Below, in pieces: positions 13,496 through 31,223 of a stretch of 38,019 nucleotides of DNA. Numbering within the stretch: the stretch's first letter is position 1; every line of letters begins with the position of its first letter. The translations under genes and the position numbers were made by a program. The stretch is from a virus, in IMG/VR virus record IMGVR_UViG_3300036766_000220, positions 1 to 38,019 of that record; one strand, written 5' to 3'. The notes below the pieces were generated by a model. That model had not been told where the DNA came from, ran no database searches, and saw only the letters and a list, made by a program, of their open reading frames with translations.

Positions 13496-13619
13496 TCTGC
13501 TGTTGGTGGGCGGCGCCGCGGGCGTCTCATACGGTGCATGGCTTGCGTACCCACCCGCCGGATTCATCATCGCCGGAGCGCTCTTGATCGTCGCCGGGCT
13601 GAAATTGGCGGCTGCGTAA
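13464..13619 (+). CDS. small membrane protein between terminase and portal (51 aa)
   Basis: A 51-residue protein with two hydrophobic stretches (about 10-28 and 32-50) and almost no charged residues after the first eight. It starts with ATG at 13464, within the last codons of the large terminase gene, and its stop overlaps the portal ATG at 13619. Small membrane proteins in this slot are common in siphophages, with unknown function. Confidence 0.7.
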   Translation: MRQILIKLLPDLLLVGGAAGVSYGAWLAYPPAGFIIAGALLIVAGLKLAAA

Positions 13620-14848
13620 TGGCGTTTCTCGCTGATGCCTTTGCGCGGAAAGCATCCAGCGGTGGTTATGCCCTGCTGCGGGAAATCGCTGGATGGGGCC
13701 GCACATCCGCAACCGGGAAAATCGTTAACGTCAAGACCGCGATCGAGGTCGCGGCGGTGCTGGCCTGCGTGCGGGTGAAGGCGAACGGAATCGCGCAAGT
13801 ACCGCTGAAATTAATGCGGTCAAGCAAGGATGGGCGGACACGGCGCCCGGCAATCGATCATCCGCTGCATGACATTCTCAAAAGCCGTCCAAACGAGTGG
13901 CAAACGAGCTTCGAATACCGCGAAATGCTCGCGATTCACCTGGCTTTATGCGGCAATGCGTTCTCATTCGTGAACCGATCGAACCGTGCCGGGATCATGG
14001 AATTGATCCCCTTCGAGCCCGGTAATGTGACGGTGAAACGCGCGGATGACCGGACGCTCACTTACGAAGTCCGGATGCAGAACGGCAGCATGCAATCCTT
14101 CCCGGCGAAGTCGATATGGCACGTGCGCGGGCCTTCATGGAACTCCTGGATGGGCTTGGAAGCGGTGCAGATCGCGCGCGAAGCGGTGGGCTTGGCAATG
14201 GCGACGGAAGAACAGCAAGCCAAGATGCAAAAAAATGGTGTCCGAGCGTCCGGCACTTACAGCGTCGAAGGCACGCTCAAGGAGGAGCAATACAAGGCGC
14301 TCAAAACGTGGATTAATGAGAATTATGCCGGACCGGAGCACGCTGGTGCGCCGATGGTCCTGGACCGCAACGCCAAATGGCTGCAGAACAGCATGACGGG
14401 AGTGGATGCGCAGACCATCGAGACGCGCCGCTTCCAGGTCGAGGAAATCGCGCGGCATCTCGGCGTGAACCCGATCATGATCTTTGCCGAGAGTAAGAAC
14501 ACGACCTACGCGAGCGCCGAGCAGATGTTTCTCGCCCACGTCGTTCACACGCTGGCGCCGGATTATTCTCGCATCGAACAATCGATCGACGCCAATCTGC
14601 TTACGGAAGCCGATCGCGCGGACGGGTTGTACTCGAACTTCGTGGATGCCGGGCTGCTACGCGGCTCGATCACGAATCAGAAAGACGTGATTCTCGGATA
14701 CGTCAATGGTGGCGTGATGTTCCCGAACGAAGGCCGCGCGCTGCTTGATCTCAATCCCGACACGGACCCGGCCAGCGACAAGCTGCGCATCCCCGCGAAT
14801 ATCGTCGGGGCTGTGCCGACAGAAAAACCGACAGGAGCAACGGCATGA
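13619..14848 (+). CDS. portal protein (HK97 family)
   Basis: A 409-residue portal that forms the dodecameric ring at one head vertex, through which DNA passes. The family pattern is clear: TAIEVAAVLACVRVKANGIAQVPLKLM near 40-65 (quoted in part), HPLHDILKSRPNEWQTSFEY near 78-97, and RRFQVEEIARHLGVNP near 265-280, ending in an NPDTDPASDKL tail. The ATG at 13619 overlaps the preceding stop; an upstream reading is not supported. Its stop overlaps the protease ATG (ATGA). Confidence 0.95.
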   Translation: MAFLADAFARKASSGGYALLREIAGWGRTSATGKIVNVKTAIEVAAVLACVRVKANGIAQVPLKLMRSSKDGRTRRPAIDHPLHDILKSRPNEWQTSFEYREMLAIHLALCGNAFSFVNRSNRAGIMELIPFEPGNVTVKRADDRTLTYEVRMQNGSMQSFPAKSIWHVRGPSWNSWMGLEAVQIAREAVGLAMATEEQQAKMQKNGVRASGTYSVEGTLKEEQYKALKTWINENYAGPEHAGAPMVLDRNAKWLQNSMTGVDAQTIETRRFQVEEIARHLGVNPIMIFAESKNTTYASAEQMFLAHVVHTLAPDYSRIEQSIDANLLTEADRADGLYSNFVDAGLLRGSITNQKDVILGYVNGGVMFPNEGRALLDLNPDTDPASDKLRIPANIVGAVPTEKPTGATA

Positions 14849-15605: not shown

Positions 15606-16823
15606 ATGGAACTCAAGGATCTCGCCGCCCTGATCGAAGACCAGGGCAGGGCGTGGGAAGCATTCAAGAAAGCGAACGATGCGCGGCTTGCCGCCATAGA
15701 GGCCAAGGGCTACGCGCCCGCCGAGCTTACCGAGAAGGTCGAGAAGATCAACGCCGATATCGCATCGATCGGCAAGCAGATGACCGACATCGAAAAGAAA
15801 GCTGGGCGCCCGAAAGCTGATGGCGACAAGGAGGTTACGCCCGAGCAGGCCGAATACCGCAAGGCGTTCGGTCTCTACCTGCGCAAGGGACGCGCCGATG
15901 GGCTGGAAGAACTCGGCCGCAAGGCGATGAATACAGGTTCCGATCCGGACGGCGGCTATCTGGTGGTGCCGGAAATGGATCTGGCCATCGACCGCGTTGC
16001 AGGGACGATGGGCGGGCTCGCTCCACTGTGCGACACCATCACCATCGGCACTGCGAAGTGGGAAAAGCTGGTGAAGACTTCCGGCATGGCGATGCGTCGG
16101 GTTGCCGAGGGGGCCACGGGTGGGGAAACCACCGAGCCGAAGTTCGCCAAGGTCGCGATCGAGGTCTTTCCGGCCGAGGTCGAGCCGTGGGTATTCAACG
16201 AAACGCTGGAGGATTCGCGCATCGATCTGGAATCCGATCTAGCGAATGAAGCGGCGATCGGGTTCACGGAAGGGGCCAACGCGGAATACATCACCGGCAA
16301 CGGTGTTGGAAAAGCCCGCGGTATCACGGCCTATACCAACGTTTTGAATTCCGCCTACGCCTGGGGCTCGGTTGGCTATGTCGTATCAGGGAAGACCGCT
16401 GCGTTTGCTTCCGTCGCGCCCTCGGACAAGATCGTCGATTTGCAGCACGCCCTCAAGTCGCAGTATCGCCAGGGCGCGGCGTTCGTTATGAACGATTCCA
16501 CGCTCGGCACGGTGCGGCAACTGAAGGACGGTAGCGGAAGCTACTATCTGTGGAATCCGGATGCCGCGGCCGGATTTGGTGGGCGGCTGCTTGGTTCTCC
16601 GGTGGTGATCGACGACAACATGGCGAACGTCGGCGCCGGCGCCTATGCCATTGCCTTTGGCAACTGGAAGCGCGCCTACAAGATCGTCAATCGCGCCGGG
16701 ACGACTCTGATCCGCGACAACATCACGGCCAAGGGTCAGACCAAATTTAATTTTAGGCGCAGGTTCGGCGGTGGCGTCGTCAACTACGAGGCGTTCAAGC
16801 TGTTCAAGGTGGCGACTTCGTAG
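15606..16823 (+). CDS. major capsid protein (HK97 fold)
   Basis: A 405-residue capsid protein. The first ~105 residues are a charged coiled-coil-like delta domain expected to be cleaved by the upstream protease. The mature part starts near the GSDPDGGYLVVPEM stretch (about 118-131), typical of the N-arm of HK97 folds. Further family features are the EVEPWVFNETLEDS region and FVMNDSTLGTVRQLKD. A terminator with a UUCG loop follows, so this gene ends a strongly expressed transcript segment. Confidence 0.95.
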   Translation: MELKDLAALIEDQGRAWEAFKKANDARLAAIEAKGYAPAELTEKVEKINADIASIGKQMTDIEKKAGRPKADGDKEVTPEQAEYRKAFGLYLRKGRADGLEELGRKAMNTGSDPDGGYLVVPEMDLAIDRVAGTMGGLAPLCDTITIGTAKWEKLVKTSGMAMRRVAEGATGGETTEPKFAKVAIEVFPAEVEPWVFNETLEDSRIDLESDLANEAAIGFTEGANAEYITGNGVGKARGITAYTNVLNSAYAWGSVGYVVSGKTAAFASVAPSDKIVDLQHALKSQYRQGAAFVMNDSTLGTVRQLKDGSGSYYLWNPDAAAGFGGRLLGSPVVIDDNMANVGAGAYAIAFGNWKRAYKIVNRAGTTLIRDNITAKGQTKFNFRRRFGGGVVNYEAFKLFKVATS

Positions 16824-16906: not shown

Positions 16907-17341
16907 ATGACGATCAGAGACATGCACGACAACGTGCGCACGAAAACAGGCATCAAAGCGGGGGCATTTGCATCTGCTGCTGGACAGGCCGGCAAGATCA
17001 TCGACCGGCAAGGCTATGGTGGCGTGGAATTCGTGTTCGCTTATGGCGAGATCACGTCTTCCGCCGCGACCATTCCCGTGGTTATCAAGGAGGGCCTTGT
17101 CACGACTACGCTGACCAGCGTCGCAGATGCCGATCTTCTGGGCACCGAATTGCTGGCTGGTATTGCGGCCGGTGCGCGGACTTCCGGGACCGGCAAGAAC
17201 GTGACGAAGCGGATCGGTTACATCGGCCAGAAACGCTATGTTCAGGCGAGCCTCGGAGCGGCTACGACATCGGCGGCGGTGCCTGTGTCGATCACGGCCA
17301 TTCTGCACAGCCCGGCCAACGCGCCGCAAACGAACCCGTAA
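16907..17341 (+). CDS. putative head decoration or minor structural protein
   Basis: A 144-residue Ala/Thr/Gly-rich protein, predicted beta-rich with repeated short strands and no membrane segment. It lies immediately after the capsid terminator, the slot of decoration or minor structural proteins in phages such as lambda and HK97 relatives, so a virion role is likely but inferred. Ser and Thr make up a large share of its residues. A GGTAA-type spacer with AAAGG precedes the ATG. Confidence 0.7.
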   Translation: MTIRDMHDNVRTKTGIKAGAFASAAGQAGKIIDRQGYGGVEFVFAYGEITSSAATIPVVIKEGLVTTTLTSVADADLLGTELLAGIAAGARTSGTGKNVTKRIGYIGQKRYVQASLGAATTSAAVPVSITAILHSPANAPQTNP

Positions 17342-17421: not shown

Positions 17422-18765
17422 ATGAATGAAGGCGAAAGACAAGTTGCGCCAACGCTGGACGGCATCCGGCGCGATCACGTGGCGCGGTACGAATTCGCGG
17501 CACGCATATTGCCCAAGGGCAGCCGCATCATAGACTTCGCCTGCGGGGTCGGGTACGGAACGCGCATCCTGGAAGACGCCGGACATCAGCCGCGCGGTTT
17601 TGATTGCGACAGCGAGGCGCTGGCATACGGCCGCGAGCATTATACGCACCATAATTCGCCGCAGGGCCTGTTTTGTTTCGGTGATGGTGATACCACTGGC
17701 GAGCTCGGCGAATACGATGCGGCGGTCTGTTTCGAGACTGTCGAGCACATTGAAGACCCGCGCCCGCTGTTAAAGGCTCTGAGGGTATCTGCGCCGCTCT
17801 TGATCGCCAGCGTGCCGAATGAAGATGTGATTCCGTTCCAGAATGCTGCTGGTGATACAGCGCCGTTTCATTTTCGCCACTATACGAAACACGAATTCAA
17901 AGCTCTGTTGCAACAATGTGGCTGGTGCGTGACAGAGTGGCATGGACAGGAGGGACCGGAGTCCGAAGTCGAGCCGAACGTGAACGGGAGGACGCTGATT
18001 GCGATAGCAAGACGCGAGGCAGTGCCGGATGAGACGATTTCCGGTAAGCACGTTGCAATCCTTGGGCTTGGCGGGAGCTTGGATCAGTATCTGGAAATTA
18101 CCAAGCGATTGGGCGGCAGGTCGAAATTCTGCGACGAGACGTGGGCAATCAATGCGCTGGGCGACATCTTCCAATGCGATTTGGTTTTCCACATGGACGA
18201 CGTGCGTATTCAGGAGATCCGTGCGGCTGCTGCGCCGGAATCGAACATAGCGGCAATGCTGCCGTGGTTGAAGGCGAGCAAGGTTCCAGTGGTGACGAGC
18301 CGCGCGCACCCGGATTACCCGGCGCTGGTCGAATACCCGCTTGAGGATGTGCTGAACAACCTCGGGCATGACTATTTCAATTCAACCAGTGCATATGCGG
18401 TGGCGCTTGCGATCCACATCGGGGTGGCGAAGATCAGCCTGTTCGGGATTGATTTCACATTACCAAATCAGCACCAGGCGGAAAAGGGCAGGGCGTGTGT
18501 TGAATACTGGTTAGGCAAGGCGCAGGAACGCGGGATCAAGATCAGCCTGCCGAAGACTACGACGCTGATGGACGCCTGCCACACGAGGGCCGAACGGCTT
18601 TACGGCTACGACACGGTAGACGTGCGATTTGACATTCAGCCTGACGGCGGGGTGAAACTGAATTTTGTTCCACGGGAAACGCTGCCGACAGCAGCAGAGA
18701 TTGAGGCTAACTACGATCACTCGGCACCGATTGCCGATCAGCACTTGAGAAAGGAAACATCATGA
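17422..18765 (+). CDS. SAM methyltransferase fused to Maf/DUF115-like glycosyltransferase domain
   Basis: A 447-residue two-domain protein. Residues about 1-200 are a class I methyltransferase (IDFACGVGYG at 37-46, acidic VCFETVEHIEDP near 102-113). Residues about 205-400 show the pattern of DUF115 (MptE-like, related to the Maf flagellin glycosyltransferases): GLGGSLD at 215-221, HMDD at 257-260, STSAYAVALAIH at 321-332, and LFGID at 340-344. The combination suggests a sugar or phosphate transferase joined to an O- or N-methyltransferase. In a structural gene block it may modify virion proteins or protect the virus. Assignment to the glycosyltransferase relatives is inference. Confidence 0.7.
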   Translation: MNEGERQVAPTLDGIRRDHVARYEFAARILPKGSRIIDFACGVGYGTRILEDAGHQPRGFDCDSEALAYGREHYTHHNSPQGLFCFGDGDTTGELGEYDAAVCFETVEHIEDPRPLLKALRVSAPLLIASVPNEDVIPFQNAAGDTAPFHFRHYTKHEFKALLQQCGWCVTEWHGQEGPESEVEPNVNGRTLIAIARREAVPDETISGKHVAILGLGGSLDQYLEITKRLGGRSKFCDETWAINALGDIFQCDLVFHMDDVRIQEIRAAAAPESNIAAMLPWLKASKVPVVTSRAHPDYPALVEYPLEDVLNNLGHDYFNSTSAYAVALAIHIGVAKISLFGIDFTLPNQHQAEKGRACVEYWLGKAQERGIKISLPKTTTLMDACHTRAERLYGYDTVDVRFDIQPDGGVKLNFVPRETLPTAAEIEANYDHSAPIADQHLRKETS

Positions 18766-19727
18766 GCCTGAGAGACAATCTACTCGCGGTCGGAATTGAT
18801 CCGGCGGTTGCCAATATCCTCGATGATTGGTATGAGCGGGCCGACGCGCTCGCCTCTGCTGGGGTTGTAAATAATAATGGCGGAACGGTAACAGTTGCCG
18901 AGCAGGGCGACGGGACGATACACAAGAGCATTTTCAACCTGACGGCGGCGCCGGTAACATTGACGGACGACGCGGGCGCGGGTCAGTGGGCGGCGCTGAA
19001 GCTGTACGATTTTCCGGCAGGCAACATCGTAACGCTTGGGGCGGTAATCGACGCCGCGCTGACGCTGAATGAGGCATGGTGGCAGGACAACGCGCCTGGC
19101 GACGTCGGGCTGGGAACGGCGGCAACCACGGACGGCACGACGCTTGCCGCGGCGGAGCAGAACATTGCCCCCACCACGGCGATCACCGCCTCTGCGCAGA
19201 TCGCGCCGCTCGACACGCAGTCTACCGGCGTTGGCGTTTCTGGCGCTGCGGGCGGGACGGACGCTGACGGCGTGCTGAACATACGCATCGACGATCAGAC
19301 CGCACACATGCCCGACGTGGTGACCAACGGCGCGTTCACCACGGACACCGGCTGGACCAAGGGCACGGGCTGGACGGTGGACGCGGCGAACAGCAACACC
19401 GCGGCAAGCGATGGATCGCAGACCGCGGCATCCGATCTCGAGCAGGCGGTAGCGTTTGTCGCGGGCGTGACTTACAAGACGGTGTTCGATGTTACGCGCT
19501 CGGCTGGCAGTGTGCGTCTCAGCATCGGCGGCACGCTCGGCACTGCCCGTTCCTCGGGCGCCACGTTCACCGAGAACATCGTCGCGGGGTCGGATGGCGT
19601 GCTCGCAGTAGTGGCGGACGCGGACTTTGTCGGCACCATCGATAACTTGGTTGTGACTCCGCTGACTGGCACTGGCACGGTCACCGGGACGGTAACGGTG
19701 GCGTGGATCAACACAGGGGACTTCTGA
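18762..19727 (+). CDS. putative virion decoration protein with carbohydrate-binding-like domain
   Basis: A 321-residue protein. The N-terminal ~170 residues are Thr/Ala/Gly-rich and beta-like. A second domain from about 185 begins VVTNGAFTTDTGWTKGTGW, the opening typical of CBM4/9-type carbohydrate-binding jelly rolls, and runs to about 305. It probably sits on the capsid and may bind host or environmental polysaccharide. Translation couples to the methyltransferase gene (ATGA overlap) and to the next gene. High Thr/Ser content makes it a possible glycosylation target. Confidence 0.6.
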   Translation: MSLRDNLLAVGIDPAVANILDDWYERADALASAGVVNNNGGTVTVAEQGDGTIHKSIFNLTAAPVTLTDDAGAGQWAALKLYDFPAGNIVTLGAVIDAALTLNEAWWQDNAPGDVGLGTAATTDGTTLAAAEQNIAPTTAITASAQIAPLDTQSTGVGVSGAAGGTDADGVLNIRIDDQTAHMPDVVTNGAFTTDTGWTKGTGWTVDAANSNTAASDGSQTAASDLEQAVAFVAGVTYKTVFDVTRSAGSVRLSIGGTLGTARSSGATFTENIVAGSDGVLAVVADADFVGTIDNLVVTPLTGTGTVTGTVTVAWINTGDF

Positions 19728-19942
19728 TGCTTTACGAAATCCTCAGGGATTTTCCCGGCTCGCAGGATGGCCGTTTCACCGATCAATTTAAGGCTGGCAC
19801 GCGGCGCGAATTGTCCGACTATCTTGCTGCAATCGTTGTCCCTGCCGGATGGGCGCGGGCGGTTGGCGAGAAAGTCGAGATCAACAACAAAGCCGTGGTT
19901 AGCGACGGAAGCAATCAGGCGATGCGGCGCGGGAAGAAGTAA
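19727..19942 (+). CDS. small hypothetical protein (71 aa)
   Basis: ATG 19727 overlaps the preceding stop (TGATG). The product is soluble and basic at its C terminus (RRGKK). No family is recognised. Its place among candidate decoration proteins suggests a minor structural or assembly role. Confidence 0.65.
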   Translation: MLYEILRDFPGSQDGRFTDQFKAGTRRELSDYLAAIVVPAGWARAVGEKVEINNKAVVSDGSNQAMRRGKK

Positions 19943-19975
19943 CGTTTCCAAACACGGTAACGAAAGGAACCTGTC

Positions 19976-20401
19976 ATGGCGAGCAAACTGAACTACGTCG
20001 CGGCGTTAGAAAAAGCCCGCATGGACGAAATCACTACGGCGGTAGGCAGTGCGGGCAAGCTGTTTATGTTCAAGGGAACACAACCGGCCGGCCCCGGCAC
20101 AACGCACGCCGAGGTATTGGTGGCGGGCCCGTTCACTCTCGGTTCGCCGTTCGCGCCTGGCGCGACGAGCGCGCTGCCCTCGGTGCTGTCTCCGACGCTG
20201 CCCAGCAACGTCAATGCGACGACGAGTGACCAGCCGACGTGGTGGCGGGTGACGACCTCGGCGGGATCGGCGACCAGCGCCGGTATCGTTGACGGCAGTG
20301 CGGCTACATCGGGCGCGGACATGACCGTTGGCCCGACGACCGCCGGCCAGCCGGTGGCGATCACCGCTTGGACTCTGAGCAGCGCGACTTACGGGCATTA
20401 A
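19976..20401 (+). CDS. Ser/Thr/Ala-rich structural protein (141 aa)
   Basis: A 141-residue protein; after a short N-terminal helix it is mostly Ser, Thr, Ala, Gly and Pro, with little charge. Such low-complexity beta-rich sequences are usual in virion decoration or fibre subunits. AAAGGA precedes the ATG. It lies directly before a DUF115/Maf-like gene, so it could be a substrate of that enzyme. Confidence 0.65.
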   Translation: MASKLNYVAALEKARMDEITTAVGSAGKLFMFKGTQPAGPGTTHAEVLVAGPFTLGSPFAPGATSALPSVLSPTLPSNVNATTSDQPTWWRVTTSAGSATSAGIVDGSAATSGADMTVGPTTAGQPVAITAWTLSSATYGH

Positions 20402-20410
20402 GACGATGTC

Positions 20411-21277
20411 GTGTTCAAGACGCCTCTCACAGCCACGGAGCGCCTCGCGCGAATGCGAGAGAACGCGCAGCGTTTCGATTGCGCACGGCTGCATCCCACG
20501 CCGCCCGGCATCAAGCGCGGGATAATCTCCGTCTGCGGTTTCGGCCCCTCCCTTGCCGATACATGGCGAGAGATCAAGGGCCGCGTCATGACGACAAGTG
20601 GCGCGCATGATTTTTTGATCGGGAAGGGCGTGATTCCGAAGTATCACGTCGAAACAGACCCGCGCGAGCACAAGGTAAATTTCGTCCGCAATTCGCACCC
20701 GGACGTGACTTACCTGATTAACTCGCAATGCCATCCGAAGATGTTTGAAATGTTGCTGGCGGCTGGCCGGCGCGTGCTGATGTGGCATGGCTTTACAGAC
20801 GATGACGCTGAGGCGCAAATCGCGCTGATGGAATCCCTTGAGCCGGGCGCGCGCCTGATGGCCGGCGGCACCAACGCCGGGATGCGCGCAATTGTAGCAG
20901 CGCGCGAGTTGGGTTACACCCGCTTCTATCTTCACGGCATGGATTGCTGCTACCGGGGCGAGGAACAGTGGGCGGGCGAGCACTTCACCAAAAAATGCTA
21001 CCCGGTCAAGATCGAGGTTGAAGGCCGCGTGTTTGAGACTTCCGAGCAGATGATGCAATCCACGGACGATTTTTTCAACACGCTTCACATGCTTTCCGGG
21101 TGCAGCTTCAAGATTTACGGTGACGGACTGCTGGAAGCGCGGATGCAGATGTTCATGCGCGACCGCGATAAGGCGCTTAACTGGGGCTGGTGGAAGCCGG
21201 TGGATTTTGCGCTGAAAAAACTTATTATTGAGCGCCCATTGCCGGACGCCGAACCTAAACTGCGGCGTTCGGCATGA
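20411..21277 (+). CDS. Maf/DUF115-like (MptE-like) protein, candidate glycosyltransferase
   Basis: A 288-residue protein with the core pattern of the DUF115/Maf family: VCGFGPSL at 41-48 (the GxGPSL nucleotide-binding loop), YHVETDP at 78-84, GGTNAGMRAIVAA at 152-164 and YLHGMD at 173-178. Maf family members transfer pseudaminic- or legionaminic-type sugars to flagellin. Here no flagellar genes are present; the gene precedes a Ser/Thr-rich fibre, so virion glycosylation is the attractive reading. Starts with GTG at 20411; the alternative ATG at 20453 would cost 14 residues. Confidence 0.7.
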   Translation: MFKTPLTATERLARMRENAQRFDCARLHPTPPGIKRGIISVCGFGPSLADTWREIKGRVMTTSGAHDFLIGKGVIPKYHVETDPREHKVNFVRNSHPDVTYLINSQCHPKMFEMLLAAGRRVLMWHGFTDDDAEAQIALMESLEPGARLMAGGTNAGMRAIVAARELGYTRFYLHGMDCCYRGEEQWAGEHFTKKCYPVKIEVEGRVFETSEQMMQSTDDFFNTLHMLSGCSFKIYGDGLLEARMQMFMRDRDKALNWGWWKPVDFALKKLIIERPLPDAEPKLRRSA

Positions 21278-22968
21278 CAACCGAAACCTTCGTCACTCCC
21301 GGACAGGCCATCTGGACGTGTCCCGCCGGAGTCACGACCGTCAAGGCAGAATTGTGGGCCGGCGGTGGCGGTGGTGGTGGAAACTCGGTTACGTCAGACG
21401 GCGGCGGTGGGGGTGCTGGCGGTGGCTACGGTCAGCTTGACGCTTACACGGTCGTTGCAGGAAGCCTCTATACCTATTTCGTCGGCACGCAGGGCGTGGG
21501 AGTCACGAGCCTTGACGGGACTTCCGGCAGCGCAACGTGGTGGCGTTCTGCCGCAGATTTCGCGGTTCCCGGCGGGCCGTTTGGCGGCGTCAGGGTTGCC
21601 AATGGCGGCCCCGGCGGCGTTGCGATCCTCACGAATGCTGCTGGCTTTGTCGGCACGTTCACCGTCAAGACCAAAGGCGGGGACGGTGGCGCTGGCGTCA
21701 ACAATAATTCAGGCGGTGGGGGCGGCGGCGGTGGTAGCGGCGGCGATACGACCTCTGGCAGCAATGGCGGGGTCGGCACTGCGGGCGCGGGTGGCGCGGG
21801 CGGCGTAGCAGGCACGACGAACGGCGGTATCGGCGGGGTCGGCGGTTCGGGCACCGCCAACGGCATCGCGCCAGTATCCGGTAACGGCGGCGGCGGCGGC
21901 GGATCAGGTGAAGGCGTAGTCAAAGGCGGGGATGGGGCGGTCGGCAAGATCATCCTGAATTACACCGCTGTAACTCCAGCAAGTATCAGCGCGATAGATT
22001 CAAGTGACACGGCGGCAGTCACCGCAGCGAACTGGAGAACGGCTCAGGTAGCTGCGGTCGAAACGACAGATGCTGCATCTGTCAGCGTGACGGTAACAAC
22101 CGGCGCTACGGTCGCGGCAACTGAATCTACCGACACGGCAGCAGTCAGCGGAGCAGCGACGCAACCCGCGAGTATCTCCGCGACTGATTCTAGCGACACG
22201 GCATCGATAGCGGCAACCATAACAACTGGCGCGGCACTGGCTGCGACCGAGACCGGCGATGCTGCGGCGGTAACAGCGGCGAATTGGACTACCGCGCAGC
22301 TCGCCGCCAGCGATTCGAGCGACACGGCGAGCATTACCGCTGATGCAGGATCGGCTGCTACTCAAGTGACCATCGCGGCGACCGACGCCAGCGATACGGC
22401 GGCGCTCTCCACCACAGTAACCACGGGCGCGGCGTTGTCGGCCGCGGACGCCGGCGACACCGCGTCTGTATCAGCTGCCGTTTGGATGACGGCGCAGGTC
22501 GCAGCAGCGGACGGCAGCGATAGCGCTGTAGTCGCGGCGACGGTTACTACCGGCGCAAGTGCTGCGGCCACAGATTCAGCCGACACCGCAACGATCACGG
22601 CGGCGCTTTGGCGAACCGCTGAGATTGCGGCGAACGATGGAAGCGACAGCGCATCCGTTGCAGCGACCGTTACGACAGGCGCGGCAATCGCGGCGATGGA
22701 CGCGAGCGACGTTGCAGAGATTCTAGGCAGCGCGAATGTTGTGGCGAGTATCGAGGCGACGGACGCCAGCGACAGCGCATCACTGAGCGCTGTCAACTGG
22801 ACTACCGCACAGGTTGACACTGACGCATCGAGCGACGTTGTCTCAATAGCTGGCGCTGGGTACGGACTACCGTCTCGGCGCGGCGTATCGATCGAACATC
22901 TTGCGGCGCGGGCGGGCGGTACAGCGAGCCGCAGGCCGGCGCAAACATCAACGGGACGCAGAACATGA
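21274..22968 (+). CDS. glycine-rich and Ser/Thr/Ala-repeat virion fibre or spike
   Basis: A 564-residue fibrous protein. The N-terminal ~35 residues (TFVTPGQAIWTCPAGVTTVK) form the adhesion-type start seen in glycine-rich phage fibres. Residues about 30-225 are runs of Gly with Ala/Ser/Thr, probably a polyglycine sandwich or collagen-like region. From about 230 to 530 come ~20-residue repeats built around AxDxSDTAxxxA and TTGAxxAA alternating with WxTAQ, loaded with Ser and Thr. The basic C terminus ends in RRT. It probably decorates the head or tail and binds a host surface. It is flanked upstream by a Maf-like enzyme gene. Confidence 0.7.
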   Translation: MTTETFVTPGQAIWTCPAGVTTVKAELWAGGGGGGGNSVTSDGGGGGAGGGYGQLDAYTVVAGSLYTYFVGTQGVGVTSLDGTSGSATWWRSAADFAVPGGPFGGVRVANGGPGGVAILTNAAGFVGTFTVKTKGGDGGAGVNNNSGGGGGGGGSGGDTTSGSNGGVGTAGAGGAGGVAGTTNGGIGGVGGSGTANGIAPVSGNGGGGGGSGEGVVKGGDGAVGKIILNYTAVTPASISAIDSSDTAAVTAANWRTAQVAAVETTDAASVSVTVTTGATVAATESTDTAAVSGAATQPASISATDSSDTASIAATITTGAALAATETGDAAAVTAANWTTAQLAASDSSDTASITADAGSAATQVTIAATDASDTAALSTTVTTGAALSAADAGDTASVSAAVWMTAQVAAADGSDSAVVAATVTTGASAAATDSADTATITAALWRTAEIAANDGSDSASVAATVTTGAAIAAMDASDVAEILGSANVVASIEATDASDSASLSAVNWTTAQVDTDASSDVVSIAGAGYGLPSRRGVSIEHLAARAGGTASRRPAQTSTGRRT

Positions 22969-23534
22969 CCTTACGGATCGTTTCTCAGCCGGGCGCGGAA
23001 CCGGCGACGGCCGCGGAAGTCAAGACGGACGCCCGGATCGATACGACCGCGCTAGATACGACGATCGATCTGCTGATTACCGCCGCGCGCAAGGTTGCGG
23101 AAGATCGCACGGGACGCGCTTTCATCACGCAGACGTGGGAACTGGTGCTAGACACTTTCCCGTCGAACGAGATCGAAATCGGGATGCTGCCGATCCAGTT
23201 AATCACATCGGTCAAGTATTACGACAGCGCCAACGTGCTGCAAACGATGGCGGCAGCAGATTATGCGCTCGATGATGACACGCTGCCGGGCTGGGTGCTG
23301 CCCGCTTACGGTGTCTCGTGGCCTTCGACCTACGATATCGCGAACGCGGTTATCATCCGCTTCATTGCGGGCTACGGCGCCGCCGCGGCCGATGTGCCGG
23401 CAGAACTGCGCATGTGGATTCGCGCACAAGCGGCGCTGGCAGCGCGCAATCCCGATGGACTGCTCGATGGTCGGGCAGCACCGATCCCGTTCATTGACGG
23501 CCTGCTCGACAGCTATCGGCTGCGGTGGATTTGA
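22965..23534 (+). CDS. head-tail connector (HK97 gp6-like)
   Basis: A 189-residue connector that joins the portal ring to the neck. Features are the LDTTIDLLITAARKVAEDRTGR helix region (about 29-50), a short beta pair, and LRMWIRAQAALAARNPDGLL near the end, in line with the gp6-like family. In simpler HK97-type phages this gene directly follows the capsid gene; here it lies 6 kb away. ATGA overlap with the fibre gene couples them. Confidence 0.8.
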   Translation: MTLRIVSQPGAEPATAAEVKTDARIDTTALDTTIDLLITAARKVAEDRTGRAFITQTWELVLDTFPSNEIEIGMLPIQLITSVKYYDSANVLQTMAAADYALDDDTLPGWVLPAYGVSWPSTYDIANAVIIRFIAGYGAAAADVPAELRMWIRAQAALAARNPDGLLDGRAAPIPFIDGLLDSYRLRWI

Positions 23535-23869
23535 TGCGTATCCCGCTCAACGACCGGGTCTTGATCGAGCAGAAATCGGTGACGCAGGATGCAACCTATG
23601 GCACGCAGGTCGTCACCTGGACCCAACTTGCAACCGTGTGGGCGGATGTCGAGGACGTGCTGCCGTCGCGCTCGGAAGCGGTGCGCCAGGGTTTACAGGT
23701 CGCGCGCAATCAGACGCGGATTCGCTACATTTACCGCACCGACATTGATAGCAGCATGCGGATGACCCATCTCAGGAGCGTGAATCGCGTGTTTCAAATC
23801 GTCGGCGGTCCGGCCGAACTCGGGGCCAAAGAATATAGTGAAGTAATGTGCGAGTCGATCAGTTCGTGA
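23534..23869 (+). CDS. head closure protein (SPP1 gp16-like family)
   Basis: A 111-residue beta-rich protein with RIPLNDRVLIEQKSVTQD at the start and WADVEDVLPSRSEAV in the middle, a typical head-tail joining or closure protein pattern. ATG 23534 overlaps the connector stop (TGATG). It seals the portal after packaging and links to the tail. Confidence 0.75.
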   Translation: MRIPLNDRVLIEQKSVTQDATYGTQVVTWTQLATVWADVEDVLPSRSEAVRQGLQVARNQTRIRYIYRTDIDSSMRMTHLRSVNRVFQIVGGPAELGAKEYSEVMCESISS

Positions 23870-24123
23870 GCGAAGATAATCCGCTGTCCGTCTTCGAGTT
23901 TTCGAATGTGGTCAGATTGCGCGCTGGTGACGTGGTGCTGTTCCGTTGCCCGAAACCTTTGACCGGCAAGCAGCGCTCGGGCGCTGAAGAAGTTCTGAAT
24001 GCAGTTTTTCCCGACAATGAAACCATGATCCTCGACGGCGGGCAGGACATCGCGGTATTGCGGCCGGAGCCGGGGTTCATCGCTCGGACTATAAACAGAC
24101 TGTTTTTCAGGAAGGCACACTGA
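23866..24123 (+). CDS. small structural or neck protein (85 aa)
   Basis: An 85-residue protein with an open reading that starts with GTG at 23866 overlapping the closure-protein stop; a GTG at 23848 would extend it by six residues. The sequence is beta-rich with hydrophobic C terminus. No family is recognised. It ends overlapping the ATG of the next gene. Likely neck-assembly related. Confidence 0.6.
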   Translation: MSEDNPLSVFEFSNVVRLRAGDVVLFRCPKPLTGKQRSGAEEVLNAVFPDNETMILDGGQDIAVLRPEPGFIARTINRLFFRKAH

Positions 24124-24686
24124 TGGCTGAGATCGTCCACGTCAAGGGCCTTTCCGATCTCAACAAGTTTTTGCAGGAGTTGCCTGTCAAGCTCGAGCGG
24201 AACGTGCTGCGCGGCGCGCTGCGTGCCGGCGTGAAACCGATCAAAGCTGCTGCGGTTGCCGCCTGTCCTGTCGGTGAGCCGAGCGCGGAAGGCAAGCGGC
24301 TGTATGGTCATTACAAAGGGGCCTTGCGCGACAGCATCCGCATTACCACTCGCAGCAAGGGCGGCAGGGTCACCGCGAGCGTCATGGCCGGCGGCAAGAC
24401 GAAGAAAGGCGCGGATGTTTTCTACGCGCACATGATCGAATTTACCGGGGCGGTGGCGCACGTGATCAAAGCGCCGTTCTGGAAAGGGGTGAAGGCGCTT
24501 TTCATTGGCGGGCGTTTTCTGAAATCGGTACACCATCCGGGCATGCGCGCAAAACCGTTCATGCGCCCGGCGCTCGACGCCCAGGCACAAAATGCCGTGA
24601 TCGCCTCGGCTGAATACATGAAAAAACGCCTCGCCACGAAAGAGGGGCTGGATACCTCCGGTGTGCTGATCGAGGGCGACACGTGA
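24123..24686 (+). CDS. HK97 gp10-like tail/neck protein
   Basis: A 187-residue protein of the HK97 gp10 family: LSDLNKFLQELPVKLER near 10-26, then RGALRAGVKPIKAAAVAACPVG, a beta hairpin region, and the closing HPGMRAKPFMRPALD near 139-153. It lies between closure and tail terminator genes, as expected for a tail completion component. Confidence 0.85.
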   Translation: MAEIVHVKGLSDLNKFLQELPVKLERNVLRGALRAGVKPIKAAAVAACPVGEPSAEGKRLYGHYKGALRDSIRITTRSKGGRVTASVMAGGKTKKGADVFYAHMIEFTGAVAHVIKAPFWKGVKALFIGGRFLKSVHHPGMRAKPFMRPALDAQAQNAVIASAEYMKKRLATKEGLDTSGVLIEGDT

Positions 24687-25114
24687 GCGGCGTCAGCGTG
24701 ATCTGGTATTTGCTGAAGACCAATGCTCCGGTCCTGGCCGTTGTCCCCGCCGCTCGCATCATGGCAGGCAAGCTGCCGCTCAATACCGTGCTGCCCGCTA
24801 TCTCCGTGACGCAGATCAGCAGCGTACCGTTCAACCTGATTCGCGCGAACGAAACGAACAAACTGCACACCGACCGCGTGCAGGTAACGCCGCTGGTCAA
24901 GGGCCAGGAAGGTTTTCCCCAGGGACTCGGCCGGCCCGGCGTGTATGCGTTGTTGAAATTGATCCTGGCGGCGTGCCCGAGCCAGAGGGGGCCGGTGAAT
25001 TCGATCAGCGTGGACAGCATCACGCCTGACATCGAGGGGCCGGATTTAGACGACGAGGCGAACGCGATCTACAGCGGATCAAGGGATTTTCTTGTGCGCT
25101 GGATAGGCGCGTAG
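24683..25114 (+). CDS. tail terminator protein (DUF3168-like)
   Basis: A 143-residue protein starting with GTG at 24683 (GTGA overlap). Features are a short N-terminal helix, LPAISVTQISSVPFN, and a DRVQVTPLVKG strand, a layout like the tail terminator proteins that cap the tail tube and set tail length. Family recognition is by context and pattern only. Confidence 0.7.
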   Translation: MSGVSVIWYLLKTNAPVLAVVPAARIMAGKLPLNTVLPAISVTQISSVPFNLIRANETNKLHTDRVQVTPLVKGQEGFPQGLGRPGVYALLKLILAACPSQRGPVNSISVDSITPDIEGPDLDDEANAIYSGSRDFLVRWIGA

Positions 25115-25131
25115 TCTGGTGGGGAATCGTG

Positions 25132-25686
25132 ATGACGACGAGATGGGATGTCCCGAATGATCTATGGGCCGGCGAAACCATCGCCGTCCTGGCTGGCGGC
25201 CTTGGCCTGACGCAGGAATTGGCCGACAGCGTGCGCCATCACAAGCGCATCGTGGTCCGCCGCGCGTTCCGCCTCGCGCCCGACGCCGACATGCTGGTGG
25301 CGCTCGACGGCCCGATCGGGAGCGCGGACGATTCGTTCTGGGAAGACGCGAAGAATTTTCCCGGGGTGCGCATCTGCGGGACCGAATGCGATGTCGACGC
25401 GTTGTATCCCGGATTGATGTACGAGCGGGTCGTGATCGGGCCGGCGCACGTCATTGAAATCCGCAACAATGCCTTGGCCGCAATTCGTATTGCGGAGCAG
25501 GCCGGAGCCATCAGGATATTGCTGCTCGGCTTCGACCCCGAGAGGTACGAGAAACTCCACGCCCATACCGGGTTCTTCGGTTTCATCCAGGGTCTTGAGC
25601 AGATCACCGCCGAGCTGCGCGCGAAAGGGATCGAGGTCGAGCGGATCGAGTCTACAAAAGAGATTCACGGCGGCGAGCCCGCTTAA
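25132..25686 (+). CDS. short Maf/DUF115-like protein upstream of tail tube gene
   Basis: A 184-residue Rossmann-type protein. It keeps the same positional pattern as the other two: a Gly-rich loop AGGLGL at 21-26, VALDG at 56-60, RNNALAAIRIA at 111-121, and LLLGFD at 130-135. The nucleotide loop is less canonical (no GPSL) and the protein is shorter, so it may be a minimal or partner subunit. The ATG at 25132 has GGGGA upstream. Its place just before the major tail protein gene suggests it acts on the tail or its neighbours. Confidence 0.65.
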   Translation: MTTRWDVPNDLWAGETIAVLAGGLGLTQELADSVRHHKRIVVRRAFRLAPDADMLVALDGPIGSADDSFWEDAKNFPGVRICGTECDVDALYPGLMYERVVIGPAHVIEIRNNALAAIRIAEQAGAIRILLLGFDPERYEKLHAHTGFFGFIQGLEQITAELRAKGIEVERIESTKEIHGGEPA

Positions 25687-25786: not shown

Positions 25787-26248
25787 ATGGCTGCTCACAC
25801 CGCAGTTGCATCGCACACCGACGCGATTTATTCCGTCAGCGCGGGCCTTCCGGGAACCTACGATGCCTCAGGCTATGGCGCGACCACCATCGCATGGACA
25901 GTCGTCGGCAAGGTATCCGATTTTCTGCCCTATGGCAGCCGCCGGTCGATTAATGAATTTGTGCCCATCGCTGGCGCGGTCGAGTACACGAAAGGCGCGC
26001 CGCGTTACGGCCAAGGCGATATGCTGATGGGGGATGTCCCCGCCGACGCCGGGCAGGTGATCCTCAAGGCGGCCGAGGCCTCGGCGAATCATTACTCGCT
26101 CAAAATTGTCTACCCGGACAGCGAGACGCATTATCTCGACATCATCGTCGCGGCGTGGACACTCAGTGGCGGCCATGAAGGCGCGCCGATGGTGAGGACC
26201 GCAACGCTCGGCATCTGCAAGGCGCCGGTCGTCGTGGCTGCTTCGTAA
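25787..26248 (+). CDS. major tail tube protein
   Basis: A 153-residue beta-rich protein with a good AAAGGA ribosome site and a 100-base gap before it. Sequence features are an N-terminal strand pair, WTVVGKVSDFLPYG, a long beta stretch (TKGAPRYGQGDMLMG) and a C-terminal IVAAWTLSGGHEG strand, consistent with tail-tube folds. It precedes a large hairpin and the tail chaperone gene, which is the usual place for the tube protein. Confidence 0.8.
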   Translation: MAAHTAVASHTDAIYSVSAGLPGTYDASGYGATTIAWTVVGKVSDFLPYGSRRSINEFVPIAGAVEYTKGAPRYGQGDMLMGDVPADAGQVILKAAEASANHYSLKIVYPDSETHYLDIIVAAWTLSGGHEGAPMVRTATLGICKAPVVVAAS

Positions 26249-26349: not shown

Positions 26350-26790
26350 ATGGAACCCGATTTTGACATATCGAAGTACGAGCTTGAGGAAACGGCGACG
26401 CTCACCGTGCAGAACGCGAAAGGCGACGATGACCTGATTGGCGCCGACGGCAAGAACCCGGTCACCATCGAACTCTATGGGTCAGGCAGCCGGCAGGCGA
26501 TCAAGGCGCTGCACCGGGCGGGACAGCAGGCGCAGCTACGTTTCCAGGCCTTGTTCCGCGGCAAGGTGGACAAGCGCGCCGCGGAAGACGCCGACGCAGA
26601 GATGGTTGAGAAGTTGGTGGCCTGCACCAAGGCGATCAACAATTTTCCGATCGAGCCGAAATCGTTGTATTCGAATCCGAAGCTCGGCTACATCACCAAG
26701 GCCGTGATCAAGTTCCTGGATGACGACGGCAATTTCGCGAAGCCCTCTTCGGCGAGCTCGCCCTCTACGTTCGGCAACTCGCTTACCTGA
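26350..26790 (+). CDS. tail assembly chaperone (G-like)
   Basis: A 146-residue chaperone protein needed for tail assembly; AAAGGT precedes its ATG. It is followed by an overlapping reading in the -1 frame, as in the lambda G/GT pair. The first half is beta-rich, followed by a helical segment about 48-100. It ends soon after a low-complexity Ser/Pro stretch (SSASSPSTF) that probably exists because the same bases also encode the fused frame. Confidence 0.75.
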   Translation: MEPDFDISKYELEETATLTVQNAKGDDDLIGADGKNPVTIELYGSGSRQAIKALHRAGQQAQLRFQALFRGKVDKRAAEDADAEMVEKLVACTKAINNFPIEPKSLYSNPKLGYITKAVIKFLDDDGNFAKPSSASSPSTFGNSLT

Positions 26791-27239
26791 ACACCGCGCC
26801 GGAGAGGGCGAAGCACGACAAGTCCGAGACGCCGCCGATCTCGCGCCTGGAACGATTGCGGCGCGACTGGACGCCTGAATGGGCGGGCTGGGTTTCCGGA
26901 TCGACCGTTGAGGCGCTGCGGGCCGACTACATGCCCGATATGCCGCCGCTGGAACGCGGCGCTTATCTCATCAACTATCTGTTCCAGATAGGTCCCGTCA
27001 TGGCCGCCGGGATGGGGGCGGGGCCGATCACGCACGGCGAATTGCTGGCGTGGCAGGAGAACGTGGGGGTCGATCTCAAGCCGTGGGAGATCAGTTTCCT
27101 GCGGCGGTTGTCGGGTGAATACCTGGTTGAATCGCACAAGGCCGAGAAACGGGGTGCCCAAGCGCCGTGGCTCCCGGCGGACGCTAAACCTGAAGTCTCG
27201 GATACGCAGCGCGCGATCCGCGTATTGGCAAATCTCTAG
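26724..27239 (+). CDS. tail chaperone extension (T-like), probable -1 frameshift product
   Basis: An open reading in the -1 frame, bounded on the left by TGA at 26721-26723 and overlapping the G-like gene to 26790. Its first residues (EALFGELALYVRQLAYL, from 26739) are protein-like although no start codon is in frame before TTG 26856. That favours ribosomal frameshifting in 26724-26790 over independent initiation. No canonical X XXY YYZ heptamer is visible; the AAT TTC GCG codons at 26731-26739 are the only weak candidate. The protein after the switch is ~165 residues, as in GT. Confidence 0.65.
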   Translation, partial: RRQFREALFGELALYVRQLAYLNTAPERAKHDKSETPPISRLERLRRDWTPEWAGWVSGSTVEALRADYMPDMPPLERGAYLINYLFQIGPVMAAGMGAGPITHGELLAWQENVGVDLKPWEISFLRRLSGEYLVESHKAEKRGAQAPWLPADAKPEVSDTQRAIRVLANL

Positions 27240-27248
27240 GAAAAAGTC

Positions 27249-29114
27249 ATGGCGCTTGCCGGCACTCTCGAGATCCAGATGCTCGCCAACATGGCGCGCC
27301 TGCAGACCGACATGAACCAGGCGAAGACCGTTGTCGGCAGCGCGATGGCGAACATCGAGAGCACGGTCGCCAGCGCCAAAGCCGCGCTCGGCGCGCTCGG
27401 CATCGGGCTCGGCGTCGGTTATTTCGTGTCGCTGATCAAAGGCTCGATCGACGCGGCCGACCATCTGGACAAGCTCCACAAGTCCACCAATATCTCGGTC
27501 GAAGACCTGGCGGGGCTGAGTCTGCTGGCGCGGCAAACCGGCACCGATATCGACGGTCTCGCCAAGGGCATCAACAAGATGTCGGTCGAGATAGGCAAGG
27601 ACCCCGAGAAGTTCCGCGCGCTCGGCGTCACCGCCAAGGACAACAAGGAGGCGTTCAAGCAGCTTGCCGATATTTTCAACCTGCTGCCGGATATCCAGCA
27701 GCGCAACGCATTGGCGCAGGCCGTGTTTGCCAAATCGTGGGCCGAGATGGCGCCCGCGCTGTCCGAGGGCGGCAAGAAAATCGGCGAGGTCATCGACAAG
27801 GGAGCGAAGCTCTCCGGCGTGACCGAGGAAATGGTGCAGCAGGCGCATGCGCTTAATAATAAGTGGGCCGAGCTGCATGGCACCGGCGGACTGTTGACGC
27901 GGTTGACCGGGCCGATGCTGCCGCTGCTGAATTCGCTCGCGGATAGCATGTTGGATGTCGGCAAAAAAACCGATGGAGCCACTTCTGCATTTCAGCCACT
28001 GGCAGAAATTCTGAGAGTGCTCCTTATTCTGGGGGCGAACGTGATATTCACCTTCGAGACGATCGGCAAGGATATTGCGCGCGCGGTCGAAAACGTAAAG
28101 CTGATCGCCAAAGGGGATTTCGCCGGATCGCGCGCTCTCGGCGAAATGTTCCGCAAGGACGCCGAGGCGGCGCGCAAGGCGCTCGACGCTTACGAAAAGA
28201 AAATCATGGGGCTCGGACTGACCGGCACGGCGGCGCCAGGCGCGCCGCTTCCCGATCCGGCCGCCGCCGCCGCCGCGGCTGCCAGGGCCGCCGCGTTTCT
28301 GAACAAGGACAAGGCGGTAAAGGATCGCACGGCCGAATACGAACGCGCGGCGCGCGCGATGGTCGAGGGCGAAGAGCAGGCCGCCAGGGATATCACCGAG
28401 GCGTGGAAGGCGTGGGAAGACATCCAGCTCAAGAACCACAATGACATGACCGCCGCCTGGACTCTCAACTGGAAACAGGTGTTCGACACCATCGACCAGG
28501 AGCAGGCCGACGCGATCGAGCAGGGACGGCAGTATCTCGAAGCGCTCAACAAGGACGCGAAGAAAAACGATGAGATATTCCGCCAGCTCGGCCTCACCTT
28601 CAGCTCCGCGTTCGGGCAACTGATCACCGCCGGCGGCACGGCGGGCGACGTCATGCGCGCATTCGGCAAGGACATCGCTCAACTGATCGCGAAAATCACC
28701 ATCCTCGAGCCGCTCGCCGAGAATTTGAGAAAGATTTTCAAGGACATGGGGGGCGCCGGCGGGAGCAGCATTCTGGACTGGTTTCGCGGCGGAGGCTCCA
28801 ATAGCGGTGTCGGACACGTCGATACCATCTCGGCTGAACTCGCCGCCGGCAACATCATGGGGCCGTACGCGACCGGAACGAATTACGTGCCGCGCACCGG
28901 CCTGGCATGGGTCGACCGCGGCGAGATCATTACTCCGGCCGCAGAAAACCGCGCCGGCGGAAGCGGTGGCGTGCAGAATATTTTCTACGTCGACATGTCC
29001 GGAGCCTATCCGGAATCGATGCGGGATCTGCGCAAGCTGGTCGTATCCGTCAACGGCTCGGTGGAGTCTCGCGCGCTGAACGTAATGAAACAGGCCCGTG
29101 TGCGCGGCGCGTAA
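27249..29114 (+). CDS. tail tape measure protein
   Basis: A 621-residue protein that sets tail length and is injected with the DNA. A ~60-residue helical N terminus leads into a GVGYFVSLIKGSIDAADHL membrane-active segment (about 55-75) and long alpha-helical stretches with Ala runs (around 338-350). The Gly/Asp-rich end (GGAGGSSILDWF) precedes a short C-terminal domain. At about 0.15 nm per residue, it predicts a tail of roughly 90 nm, short for a siphophage but within the usual range. Confidence 0.9.
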   Translation: MALAGTLEIQMLANMARLQTDMNQAKTVVGSAMANIESTVASAKAALGALGIGLGVGYFVSLIKGSIDAADHLDKLHKSTNISVEDLAGLSLLARQTGTDIDGLAKGINKMSVEIGKDPEKFRALGVTAKDNKEAFKQLADIFNLLPDIQQRNALAQAVFAKSWAEMAPALSEGGKKIGEVIDKGAKLSGVTEEMVQQAHALNNKWAELHGTGGLLTRLTGPMLPLLNSLADSMLDVGKKTDGATSAFQPLAEILRVLLILGANVIFTFETIGKDIARAVENVKLIAKGDFAGSRALGEMFRKDAEAARKALDAYEKKIMGLGLTGTAAPGAPLPDPAAAAAAAARAAAFLNKDKAVKDRTAEYERAARAMVEGEEQAARDITEAWKAWEDIQLKNHNDMTAAWTLNWKQVFDTIDQEQADAIEQGRQYLEALNKDAKKNDEIFRQLGLTFSSAFGQLITAGGTAGDVMRAFGKDIAQLIAKITILEPLAENLRKIFKDMGGAGGSSILDWFRGGGSNSGVGHVDTISAELAAGNIMGPYATGTNYVPRTGLAWVDRGEIITPAAENRAGGSGGVQNIFYVDMSGAYPESMRDLRKLVVSVNGSVESRALNVMKQARVRGA

Positions 29115-30773: not shown

Positions 30774-31223
30774 ATGAAGATCCGCCGCGAGCCGTTCGCG
30801 CAATGGCACGCCGAGGCCGCGCCGCTGTTCGCGGCGCACTGGCAGGAAGTCGGCTCGTTCAAGGACCGGATTGCGCTCGATATCGATATCGAGCGCATTG
30901 TCGCGCTCGAGAAAGCCGGGCTGTGGCACGCCTGGACGGCGCGGGATGAGTCGTCCGGCGCGCTCGCCGGCTACTGCTGCGTGCTGGTAGCGCCGCACCT
31001 GCATTACCGCGGGCTGCCGTTCGCCTATGTAGACGTGATTTACCTCGCGCCGGCATACCGCGGCGCACGGACCTCGCTGCGCATGATCGAGACCATGGAG
31101 AGCGGATTGCCGCCGGTCGCGAAAATCGTCTTCCACGTCAAGGTCGAGCACGACTTCGGCGCGCTGCTCGGGCGGCTCGGTTATGTCTGCACCGAAAAAA
31201 ATTTCGAGAAAGTGATGATTTGA
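30774..31223 (+). CDS. GNAT-family acetyltransferase-like protein
   Basis: A 149-residue protein with the GNAT fold pattern: N-terminal helix, GALAGYCCVLVAPHLHYRGLPFAYVDVIYLAPAYRG across strands 4-5 (the last part at motif A, with V-Y-L-xP-x-YRG), and a C-terminal FGALLGRLGYVCTEKNFEKVM. GNAT enzymes transfer acetyl from acetyl-CoA to amines. Phage GNAT proteins beside tail-tip genes are widespread with unknown targets; a tail-tip modification or host target is possible. Confidence 0.8.
   Translation: MKIRREPFAQWHAEAAPLFAAHWQEVGSFKDRIALDIDIERIVALEKAGLWHAWTARDESSGALAGYCCVLVAPHLHYRGLPFAYVDVIYLAPAYRGARTSLRMIETMESGLPPVAKIVFHVKVEHDFGALLGRLGYVCTEKNFEKVMI

What the first reader, a model, noticed from the sequence alone, without database searches (positions are those of the whole stretch)
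17422..25686. Three Maf/DUF115-like proteins beside Ser/Thr-rich virion proteins: candidate virion glycosylation system
Proteins at 17422-18765 (C-terminal domain), 20411-21277 and 25132-25686 share a common order: Gly-rich GxGxSL-type loop, an aspartate after a beta strand, an N/S...A..IA helix, and a strand ending GxD. This is the DUF115 pattern known from Maf flagellin glycosyltransferases and MptE. They are spaced among a carbohydrate-binding-like protein, a Ser/Thr/Ala-rich structural protein, a repeat fibre and the major tail tube gene. One is fused to a SAM methyltransferase, as sugar methylation would need. Together they could sugar-coat the virion. No sugar-synthesis genes are seen, so host nucleotide sugars would be used.
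Basis: partly seen in the sequence, partly recalled or inferred. Interest (0 to 1): 0.9.

Follow-up and report, generated by a model that had tools for sequence, protein, structure and literature searches.

The report
Phage sugar-transferase-like enzymes among virion genes
This virus carries three related proteins built like bacterial enzymes that attach sugars to flagella, each lodged next to a different particle-building gene in this phage and its relatives, so the phage probably decorates its own particle with sugars, although no sugar has yet been shown.

Summary
A's C-terminal domain (17422-18765), B (20411-21277) and C (25129-25686) share the DUF115/Maf/sialyltransferase fold. B passes Pfam PF01973 (51.3 bits, cut-off 34.6), and its profile finds the Maf crystal structure 5mu5 first (E 4.7e-6). 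C's model (pLDDT 92) matches Maf best (Z 12.9 over 160 of 185 residues). A's weaker model matches CstII-type sialyltransferases (Z 7.7). The three profiles align end to end.

Comparative data add more. In relatives, A sits directly behind the capsid gene and a small capsid-associated gene. C stays inside the neck gene block while changing slots, usually overlapping its neighbours. B overlaps (ATGA) a Gly-rich fibre gene in all four loci. Distant homologs lie in virion modules of D3, PAJU2, P1/P7, Caulobacter jumbo phages and S20, several beside other glycosyltransferases and methyltransferases.

The best reading is a virion-glycosylation system working like Maf with its flagellin. Catalysis, donor and acceptors are not shown, and the fold also occurs in pyrophosphokinases. 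The Ser/Thr repeat is not the constant partner of B. Phage virion glycosylation is known; this enzyme fold and one-enzyme-per-substructure layout appear undescribed in the papers searched.

The parts
15606..16823 (+). HK97-type major capsid protein
   Evidence: phrog_10 E 1.5e-59
16907..17341 (+). small capsid-associated protein (phrog_5707), candidate acceptor; conserved immediate neighbour of A
   Evidence: phrog_5707 E 6.2e-17; next to A in nearly all relatives with that flank; 18% Ser+Thr
17422..18765 (+). A: SAM methyltransferase domain (residues 1 to about 195) fused to a DUF115/CstII-like domain (about 200-447)
   Evidence: PF13489 46.3 bits; model pLDDT 69, CstII first in Foldseek (prob 0.99, E 2.9e-3) and Z 7.7; homologs 49-75% identical in 17 viral contigs
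18762..19727 (+). virion-protein-like, carbohydrate-binding-like, 19% Ser+Thr; candidate acceptor
   Evidence: weak phrog_30593 match only, E 2.8e-6; composition
19976..20401 (+). small virion structural protein (phrog_3758), 25.5% Ser+Thr; candidate acceptor
   Evidence: phrog_3758 E 1.4e-11; composition
20411..21277 (+). B: DUF115/Maf-like protein
   Evidence: PF01973 51.3 bits over cut-off; profile hits Maf 5mu5 E 4.7e-6, MptE 8sd5 E 2.8e-3
21274..22968 (+). Gly-rich fibre-like protein with variable Ser/Thr/Ala repeat tail; overlaps B by ATGA; candidate acceptor of B
   Evidence: PF21722 33.9 bits; B-Gly-rich pair kept in L002, L037, L038; tail differs or is absent among them
22965..23534 (+). 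head-tail adaptor
   Evidence: phrog_442 E 8.2e-25
23525..23869 (+). head closure protein
   Evidence: phrog_25 E 2.3e-11
24123..24686 (+). neck/tail completion protein
   Evidence: phrog_5 E 4.5e-17
24683..25114 (+). tail-terminator-position protein
   Evidence: position and conserved order with neck genes in relatives; no PHROG match
25129..25686 (+). C: compact DUF115/Maf/sialyltransferase-fold protein
   Evidence: phrog_4603 E 6.8e-11; model pLDDT 92, Maf Z 12.9, MptE 11.6, CstII 9.4
25787..26248 (+). major tail protein; candidate acceptor
   Evidence: phrog_158 E 4.7e-8

Best explanation
A, B and C are Maf/CstII-fold glycosyltransferases made together with the virion proteins late in infection. 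Each adds a sugar from a host nucleotide-activated donor to a nearby virion protein before or during assembly: A probably to the capsid or its small associated protein, B to the Gly-rich fibre (or the small protein before it), C to a neck or tail protein. A's methyltransferase domain probably caps or modifies the sugar. Shown here: the fold, purifying selection, the conserved positions, and the co-location of homologs with other glycosyltransferases and methyltransferases. Inferred: enzymatic activity, a CMP-linked donor (nonulosonate or Kdo), the acceptors, and the benefit (stability, adsorption, or hiding from defence).
For: Fold. A paper in the library states that the PF01973 domain of Maf resembles CstII and that Maf O-glycosylates flagellin Ser/Thr (PMC11339370). 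Position: A lies directly behind capsid plus phrog_5707 gene in 16 contigs; C always lies inside the neck block, commonly with overlapping start/stop codons, but in at least four different slots; B overlaps the Gly-rich gene in four of four. Cassettes: S20 has two phrog_4603 genes after the capsid with GT-D (89.6 bits), GT2 and methyltransferase; L009 has a C-like gene, a protein with a heptosyltransferase-like motif, a GT29-like match (18.4 bits, under its cut-off of 23) and methyltransferase within the neck block; L039 has a capsid-like gene, small gene, PF01973-methyltransferase fusion, FkbM and methyltransferase-GT9 fusion; CcrColossus has tail protein, phrog_4603, sugar transferase, methyltransferase, GT9; D3 has capsid, orf7, neck genes, methyltransferase. 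Methyltransferase is joined to this fold in two orders (A and L039) and is dispensable (L025, L026, L029 have the domain alone). P1 pmgO is non-essential (PMC10695390), as expected of a modification enzyme. The four most Ser/Thr-rich of the virion and packaging genes examined are the direct neighbours of A and B.
Against: No catalytic residue was tested, and the fold also serves MptE and thiamine pyrophosphokinases, which match C nearly as well. This window's A and C have an altered Gly/Pro loop. PAJU2's homolog is annotated 'structural protein'. No donor-synthesis gene was recognised in the window, and NeuB was found in only 2 of 5 genomes holding C-bearing prophages. Virion proteins are often Ser/Thr-rich without any sugar.
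Confidence: 0.6

Rival explanations
1. The proteins act on the host surface (LPS or capsule), as in serotype conversion or superinfection exclusion, not on the virion.
For: The fold is that of CstII, which builds lipooligosaccharide; GT9-like partners in related cassettes resemble LPS heptosyltransferases.
Against: The genes overlap structural genes and hold fixed late-gene positions in relatives; no strongly hydrophobic stretch (max 19-residue hydropathy 1.79 or less) in A, B or C.
Confidence: 0.17
2. They are pyrophosphokinase-like or other nucleotide-binding enzymes (MptE type) acting on a small molecule.
For: Foldseek's first hit for C is MptE/HPPK (E 4.5e-4), followed by thiamine pyrophosphokinases.
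Against: No pterin or thiamine pathway gene was recognised among the window proteins scanned; B's profile prefers Maf to MptE; A prefers sialyltransferases; related cassettes hold glycosyltransferases.
Confidence: 0.1
3. They have become non-catalytic assembly or structural proteins that keep only the fold.
For: PAJU2 homolog annotated structural protein; P7 HdmB annotated head morphogenesis; altered loop in this window's A and C; C's tight slot in the neck block.
Against: P1 pmgO is non-essential; C changes slots freely; neighbouring methyltransferases and glycosyltransferases would be unexplained; methyltransferase fusions occur in two orders.
Confidence: 0.13

Closest known systems
Maf flagellin glycosyltransferases (PF01973; 5mu5)
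   Same: Central domain fold (C: Z 12.9; B: profile E 4.7e-6); gene beside the likely acceptor; A also has a methyltransferase domain before the fold, while Maf's N-terminal domain is a degenerate Rossmann fold with weak similarity to methyltransferase motifs (PMC11339370).
   Different: Phage-encoded, no flagellin; B and C are too short for Maf's flanking domains; A's N-terminal domain is a Pfam-recognised methyltransferase.
CstII / GT42 sialyltransferases
   Same: Fold (A: Foldseek prob 0.99, Z 7.7; C: Z 9.4); PHROG 4603 carries that annotation.
   Different: Sequence identity about 10-22%; catalytic residues not mapped; acceptor would be a protein.
PHROG 4603 (D3 orf7, P1 PmgO, P7 HdmB, CcrColossus gp126)
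   Same: C, and more weakly B and A, match it; members sit in virion or late modules.
   Different: A, B and C are separate branches; none found by tblastn in isolate phages, apart from short partial matches to A.
Mycobacteriophage virion glycosylation
   Same: Phage glycosyltransferase genes are thought to modify capsid or tail (PMC11256854 abstract).
   Different: As far as I recall those enzymes are ordinary GT-A/GT-B types; not compared here.
MptE 6-hydroxymethylpterin diphosphokinase
   Same: Same fold superfamily and Pfam family.
   Different: No pterin pathway genes recognised; B, C and A rank Maf or CstII at or above MptE in profile or VIA-align comparison.

Membership tests
Pfam PF01973 (MptE-like/DUF115) | B scores above the curated cut-off | tested here: met
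   51.3 vs 34.6 bits
Pfam PF01973 (MptE-like/DUF115) | A and C score above the curated cut-off | tested here: not met
   A 12.2 bits; C no match. They share the fold, not curated membership.
DUF115/Maf/GT42 fold superfamily | C: structural match over most of the domain, well above background | tested here: met
   C: 5mu5 Z 12.9, 160 of 185 residues; unrelated rows from about Z 5
DUF115/Maf/GT42 fold superfamily | A C-terminal domain: structural match over most of the domain, well above background | tested here: inconclusive
   CstII Z 7.7, Maf 6.5 from a pLDDT 69 model, unrelated rows at 4.2 or less; Foldseek prob 0.99
Maf flagellin glycosyltransferase | Three-domain architecture with flanking N- and C-terminal domains | tested here: not met
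   B 288 aa, C 185 aa; A has one methyltransferase domain in front
Maf flagellin glycosyltransferase | Transfers a nonulosonate to Ser/Thr of a protein | not testable with these tools
   needs biochemistry
GT42 sialyltransferase | CMP-binding and catalytic residues of CstII | not tested
MptE pyrophosphokinase | ATP-dependent pyrophosphoryl transfer to a pterin | not testable with these tools
   fold compatible (Z 11.6); no pathway genes recognised
Virion glycosylation system | Sugar present on virion proteins | not testable with these tools
   needs mass spectrometry

The most novel reading that the evidence does not exclude
Many tailed phages, including the classics P1 and D3, carry an overlooked Maf-like protein-glycosylation system inside their head and neck operons, with one dedicated enzyme per virion substructure, optional methyl capping, and enzyme-acceptor pairs (such as B with its Gly-rich fibre) that move between unrelated phages as units.
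Probability: 0.45. Interest if true: 0.78.

Novelty: new variant of a known kind. Interest (0 to 1): 0.63.

Why it matters
Homologs (PHROG 4603) sit in the genomes of P1, P7 and D3 as genes of unknown or nominal function. If they glycosylate virions, sugar coating would be an old and common trait of tailed phages and testable at once in laboratory strains, bearing on particle stability, adsorption and immune recognition. The gene-beside-acceptor layout would also give natural enzyme-substrate pairs for protein glyco-engineering.

Tried and rejected
tblastn of B and C against isolate phages found nothing, and A only three partial matches; the link to isolates came through C's longer relative in L009. 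Sequence searches of the PDB with single B or with the profiles of A and C found no believable relative; only B's widened profile reached Maf. The first A-B profile comparison covered only 18 columns and became end to end after adding distant B relatives. Rejected: the Ser/Thr repeat as B's fixed substrate, since L002 has B and the Gly-rich domain without it and L037 and L038 have different repeats. Rejected: strict need for host nonulosonate synthesis (NeuB in 2 of 5 host genomes of unstated completeness), whereas the CMP-sugar synthetase family that includes KdsB is in 5 of 5. Maf of C. botulinum accepts Kdo as donor (abstract of PMC11339370), so CMP-Kdo is a possible donor. A scan with the L041 protein only returned the contigs already known. 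Literature searches for DUF115 or MptE-like with phage found no prior description of this system; subscription papers are not covered.
Full report
WHAT THE WINDOW IS. The record is a 38,019-base viral contig with a siphovirus-type late module: terminase 11738-13495, portal 13538-14848, HK97-type capsid 15606-16823, neck proteins 22965-24686, major tail protein 25787-26248, tape measure 27249-29114, tail fibre J-like 31225-34125. Its terminase is close to those of prophages in Nitrosomonas genomes (E 9e-219 and 9e-206), so a betaproteobacterial host is plausible but not shown.

STRUCTURE. The C model is good (pLDDT 92.2, pTM 0.90). The VIA-align second look gives Maf 5mu5 Z 12.9 (160 residues, 3.1 A), SteA 11.8, MptE 11.6, thiamine pyrophosphokinase 10.9, CstII 9.4 and mammalian sialyltransferases about 9, with unrelated folds from about 5 downward. 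The A domain model is weaker (pLDDT 68.9); CstII holds the first two Foldseek ranks (prob 0.99 and 0.96; all other listed rows 0.33 or less), and in VIA-align CstII and a Pasteurella sialyltransferase reach 7.7 and 7.6, Maf 6.5, MptE 5.7, with unrelated folds at 4.2 or less. B's widened profile finds Maf first in the PDB (E 4.7e-6, two colinear stretches) and MptE second (2.8e-3). That the PF01973 domain of Maf resembles CstII is stated in PMC11339370. The fold is thus settled for B and C and likely for A. The fold alone does not decide between sugar transfer and pyrophosphoryl transfer.

CONSERVED POSITIONS. Loci were fetched by searching with A, B or C alone, so their neighbours are informative. 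A follows the capsid gene and the phrog_5707 gene, with gaps of 67-117 bases in nearly all of 16 viral contigs that show this side (508 in L029; in L016 the two ORFs as called overlap). In L025, L026 and L029 the domain stands alone without methyltransferase in the same place; in L028, a different phage type, the same methyltransferase is joined to a different domain with a similar loop. C is found between adaptor and closure genes (for example L003, L012, L045-L047), between closure and neck genes (L008, L009, L022), between neck and terminator-position genes (L010, L011, L018, L048), or between terminator-position and tail genes (this window), commonly with overlapping start and stop codons. 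It changes slots but never leaves the block, including in prophages of Nitrosomonas, Sterolibacterium and Massilia. B overlaps the Gly-rich gene by ATGA in this window, L002, L037 and L038; L002 and L037 show no other recognisable relative of this phage's genes within the fetched stretch, so the pair seems to move as a unit. The Gly-rich part is conserved (81% to L037) whereas the tail repeat differs in each and is missing in L002.

WIDER FAMILY. A longer relative of C in L009 reaches 63 isolate-phage records: D3 orf7 directly behind the capsid gene and before the neck genes, PAJU2 ORF010 in the same area, annotated structural protein, P7 HdmB and P1 PmgO in the late morphogenetic operon, CcrColossus gp126 behind a tail protein and before a sugar transferase, a methyltransferase and a GT9 protein, Brevundimonas phage Bambus near tail, lectin-like and lysis genes, and virus S20 with two copies after the capsid among GT-D, GT2 and methyltransferase genes. 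Distant B relatives sit behind capsid-like genes too: L041 (67.1 bits to PF01973) and L039, where PF01973 (56.8 bits) is joined to a methyltransferase in the opposite order from A and is followed by an FkbM methyltransferase and a methyltransferase-GT9 fusion. A's methyltransferase domain alone is found near a TibC-type glycosyltransferase and a PLP-enzyme gene beside the terminase of a podovirus. Such repeated company of glycosyltransferases and methyltransferases inside virion modules is the main argument for sugar transfer to the particle.

MECHANISM. Most likely each enzyme is made in the cytoplasm together with its acceptor, as Maf is with flagellin, and adds a sugar from a host donor to Ser/Thr residues; A then methylates or caps it. 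Shown: fold, selection, position, company. Inferred: activity, donor, acceptors, benefit. The four most Ser/Thr-rich of the virion and packaging proteins compared (141-aa protein 25.5%, Gly-rich 24.5%, 321-aa protein 19.0%, phrog_5707 18.1%) are the neighbours of A and B; this is suggestive only, as decoration and fibre proteins tend to be Ser/Thr-rich. Donor: NeuB was found in 2 of 5 genomes holding a C-bearing prophage and the CMP-sugar synthetase family in 5 of 5, so a host nonulosonate cannot be assumed, while CMP-Kdo is probably available; a Maf enzyme is reported to accept Kdo (abstract of PMC11339370). P1 pmgO is dispensable for growth in the laboratory (PMC10695390), which fits a modification enzyme better than an essential assembly part.

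DOUBTS. The glycine-rich loop has lost its proline in this window's A and C, though it is kept in nearly all relatives; activity of these two copies may differ. MptE-like chemistry, host-surface glycosylation and a non-catalytic assembly role remain possible. None of these was excluded by experiment.

NOVELTY. Virion glycosylation by phage glycosyltransferases has been proposed for mycobacteriophages (PMC11256854 abstract). The searches made here found no description of DUF115/Maf-type enzymes in phage virion modules. I call it a new variant of a known kind.

Noticed in passing
L009:2604-6461: Four- to five-gene cassette inside the neck block: long C-like protein, a 314-aa protein with a heptosyltransferase-like GLGDxLxxxP motif, a GT29-like protein (18.4 bits, below cut-off) and two methyltransferase-like proteins, ahead of a second C-like gene.
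   Followed up: partly
L039:7863-12332: PF01973-methyltransferase fusion in the opposite domain order to A, then a possible sugar transferase, an FkbM methyltransferase and a methyltransferase-GT9 fusion, right behind a capsid-like gene and a small gene.
   Followed up: partly
window 18045-18090 and 25170-25230: The Gly/Pro nucleotide-binding loop is altered in both A (GLGGSL) and C (GGLGL) of this window, while nearly all relatives keep GxGP.
   Followed up: partly
window 22000-22968: The tail of the Gly-rich fibre gene is a degenerate Ser/Thr/Ala repeat that is replaced by unrelated repeats in L037 and L038 and absent in L002.
   Followed up: yes
window 30774-31223: Weak acetyltransferase-like protein (phrog_1249 E 2.9e-5; GNAT 17.6 bits, under the cut-off) within the tail genes.
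   Followed up: no
L033:5118-5810 (phage P7) and P1 ppp: A gene for a putative Ser/Thr protein phosphatase lies two genes behind the PHROG 4603 member hdmB/pmgO in P7 and P1.
   Followed up: no
L028:5525-6892: Same methyltransferase domain as A (49% identity over the match) joined to a different C-terminal domain with a similar loop, behind capsid-like and two small genes of another phage type; its relative in a Microcystis phage lies beside the terminase.
   Followed up: partly
window 26688-28817 (- strand): A 709-aa open frame antisense to the tape measure gene; probably a by-product of high G+C coding, not examined.
   Followed up: no
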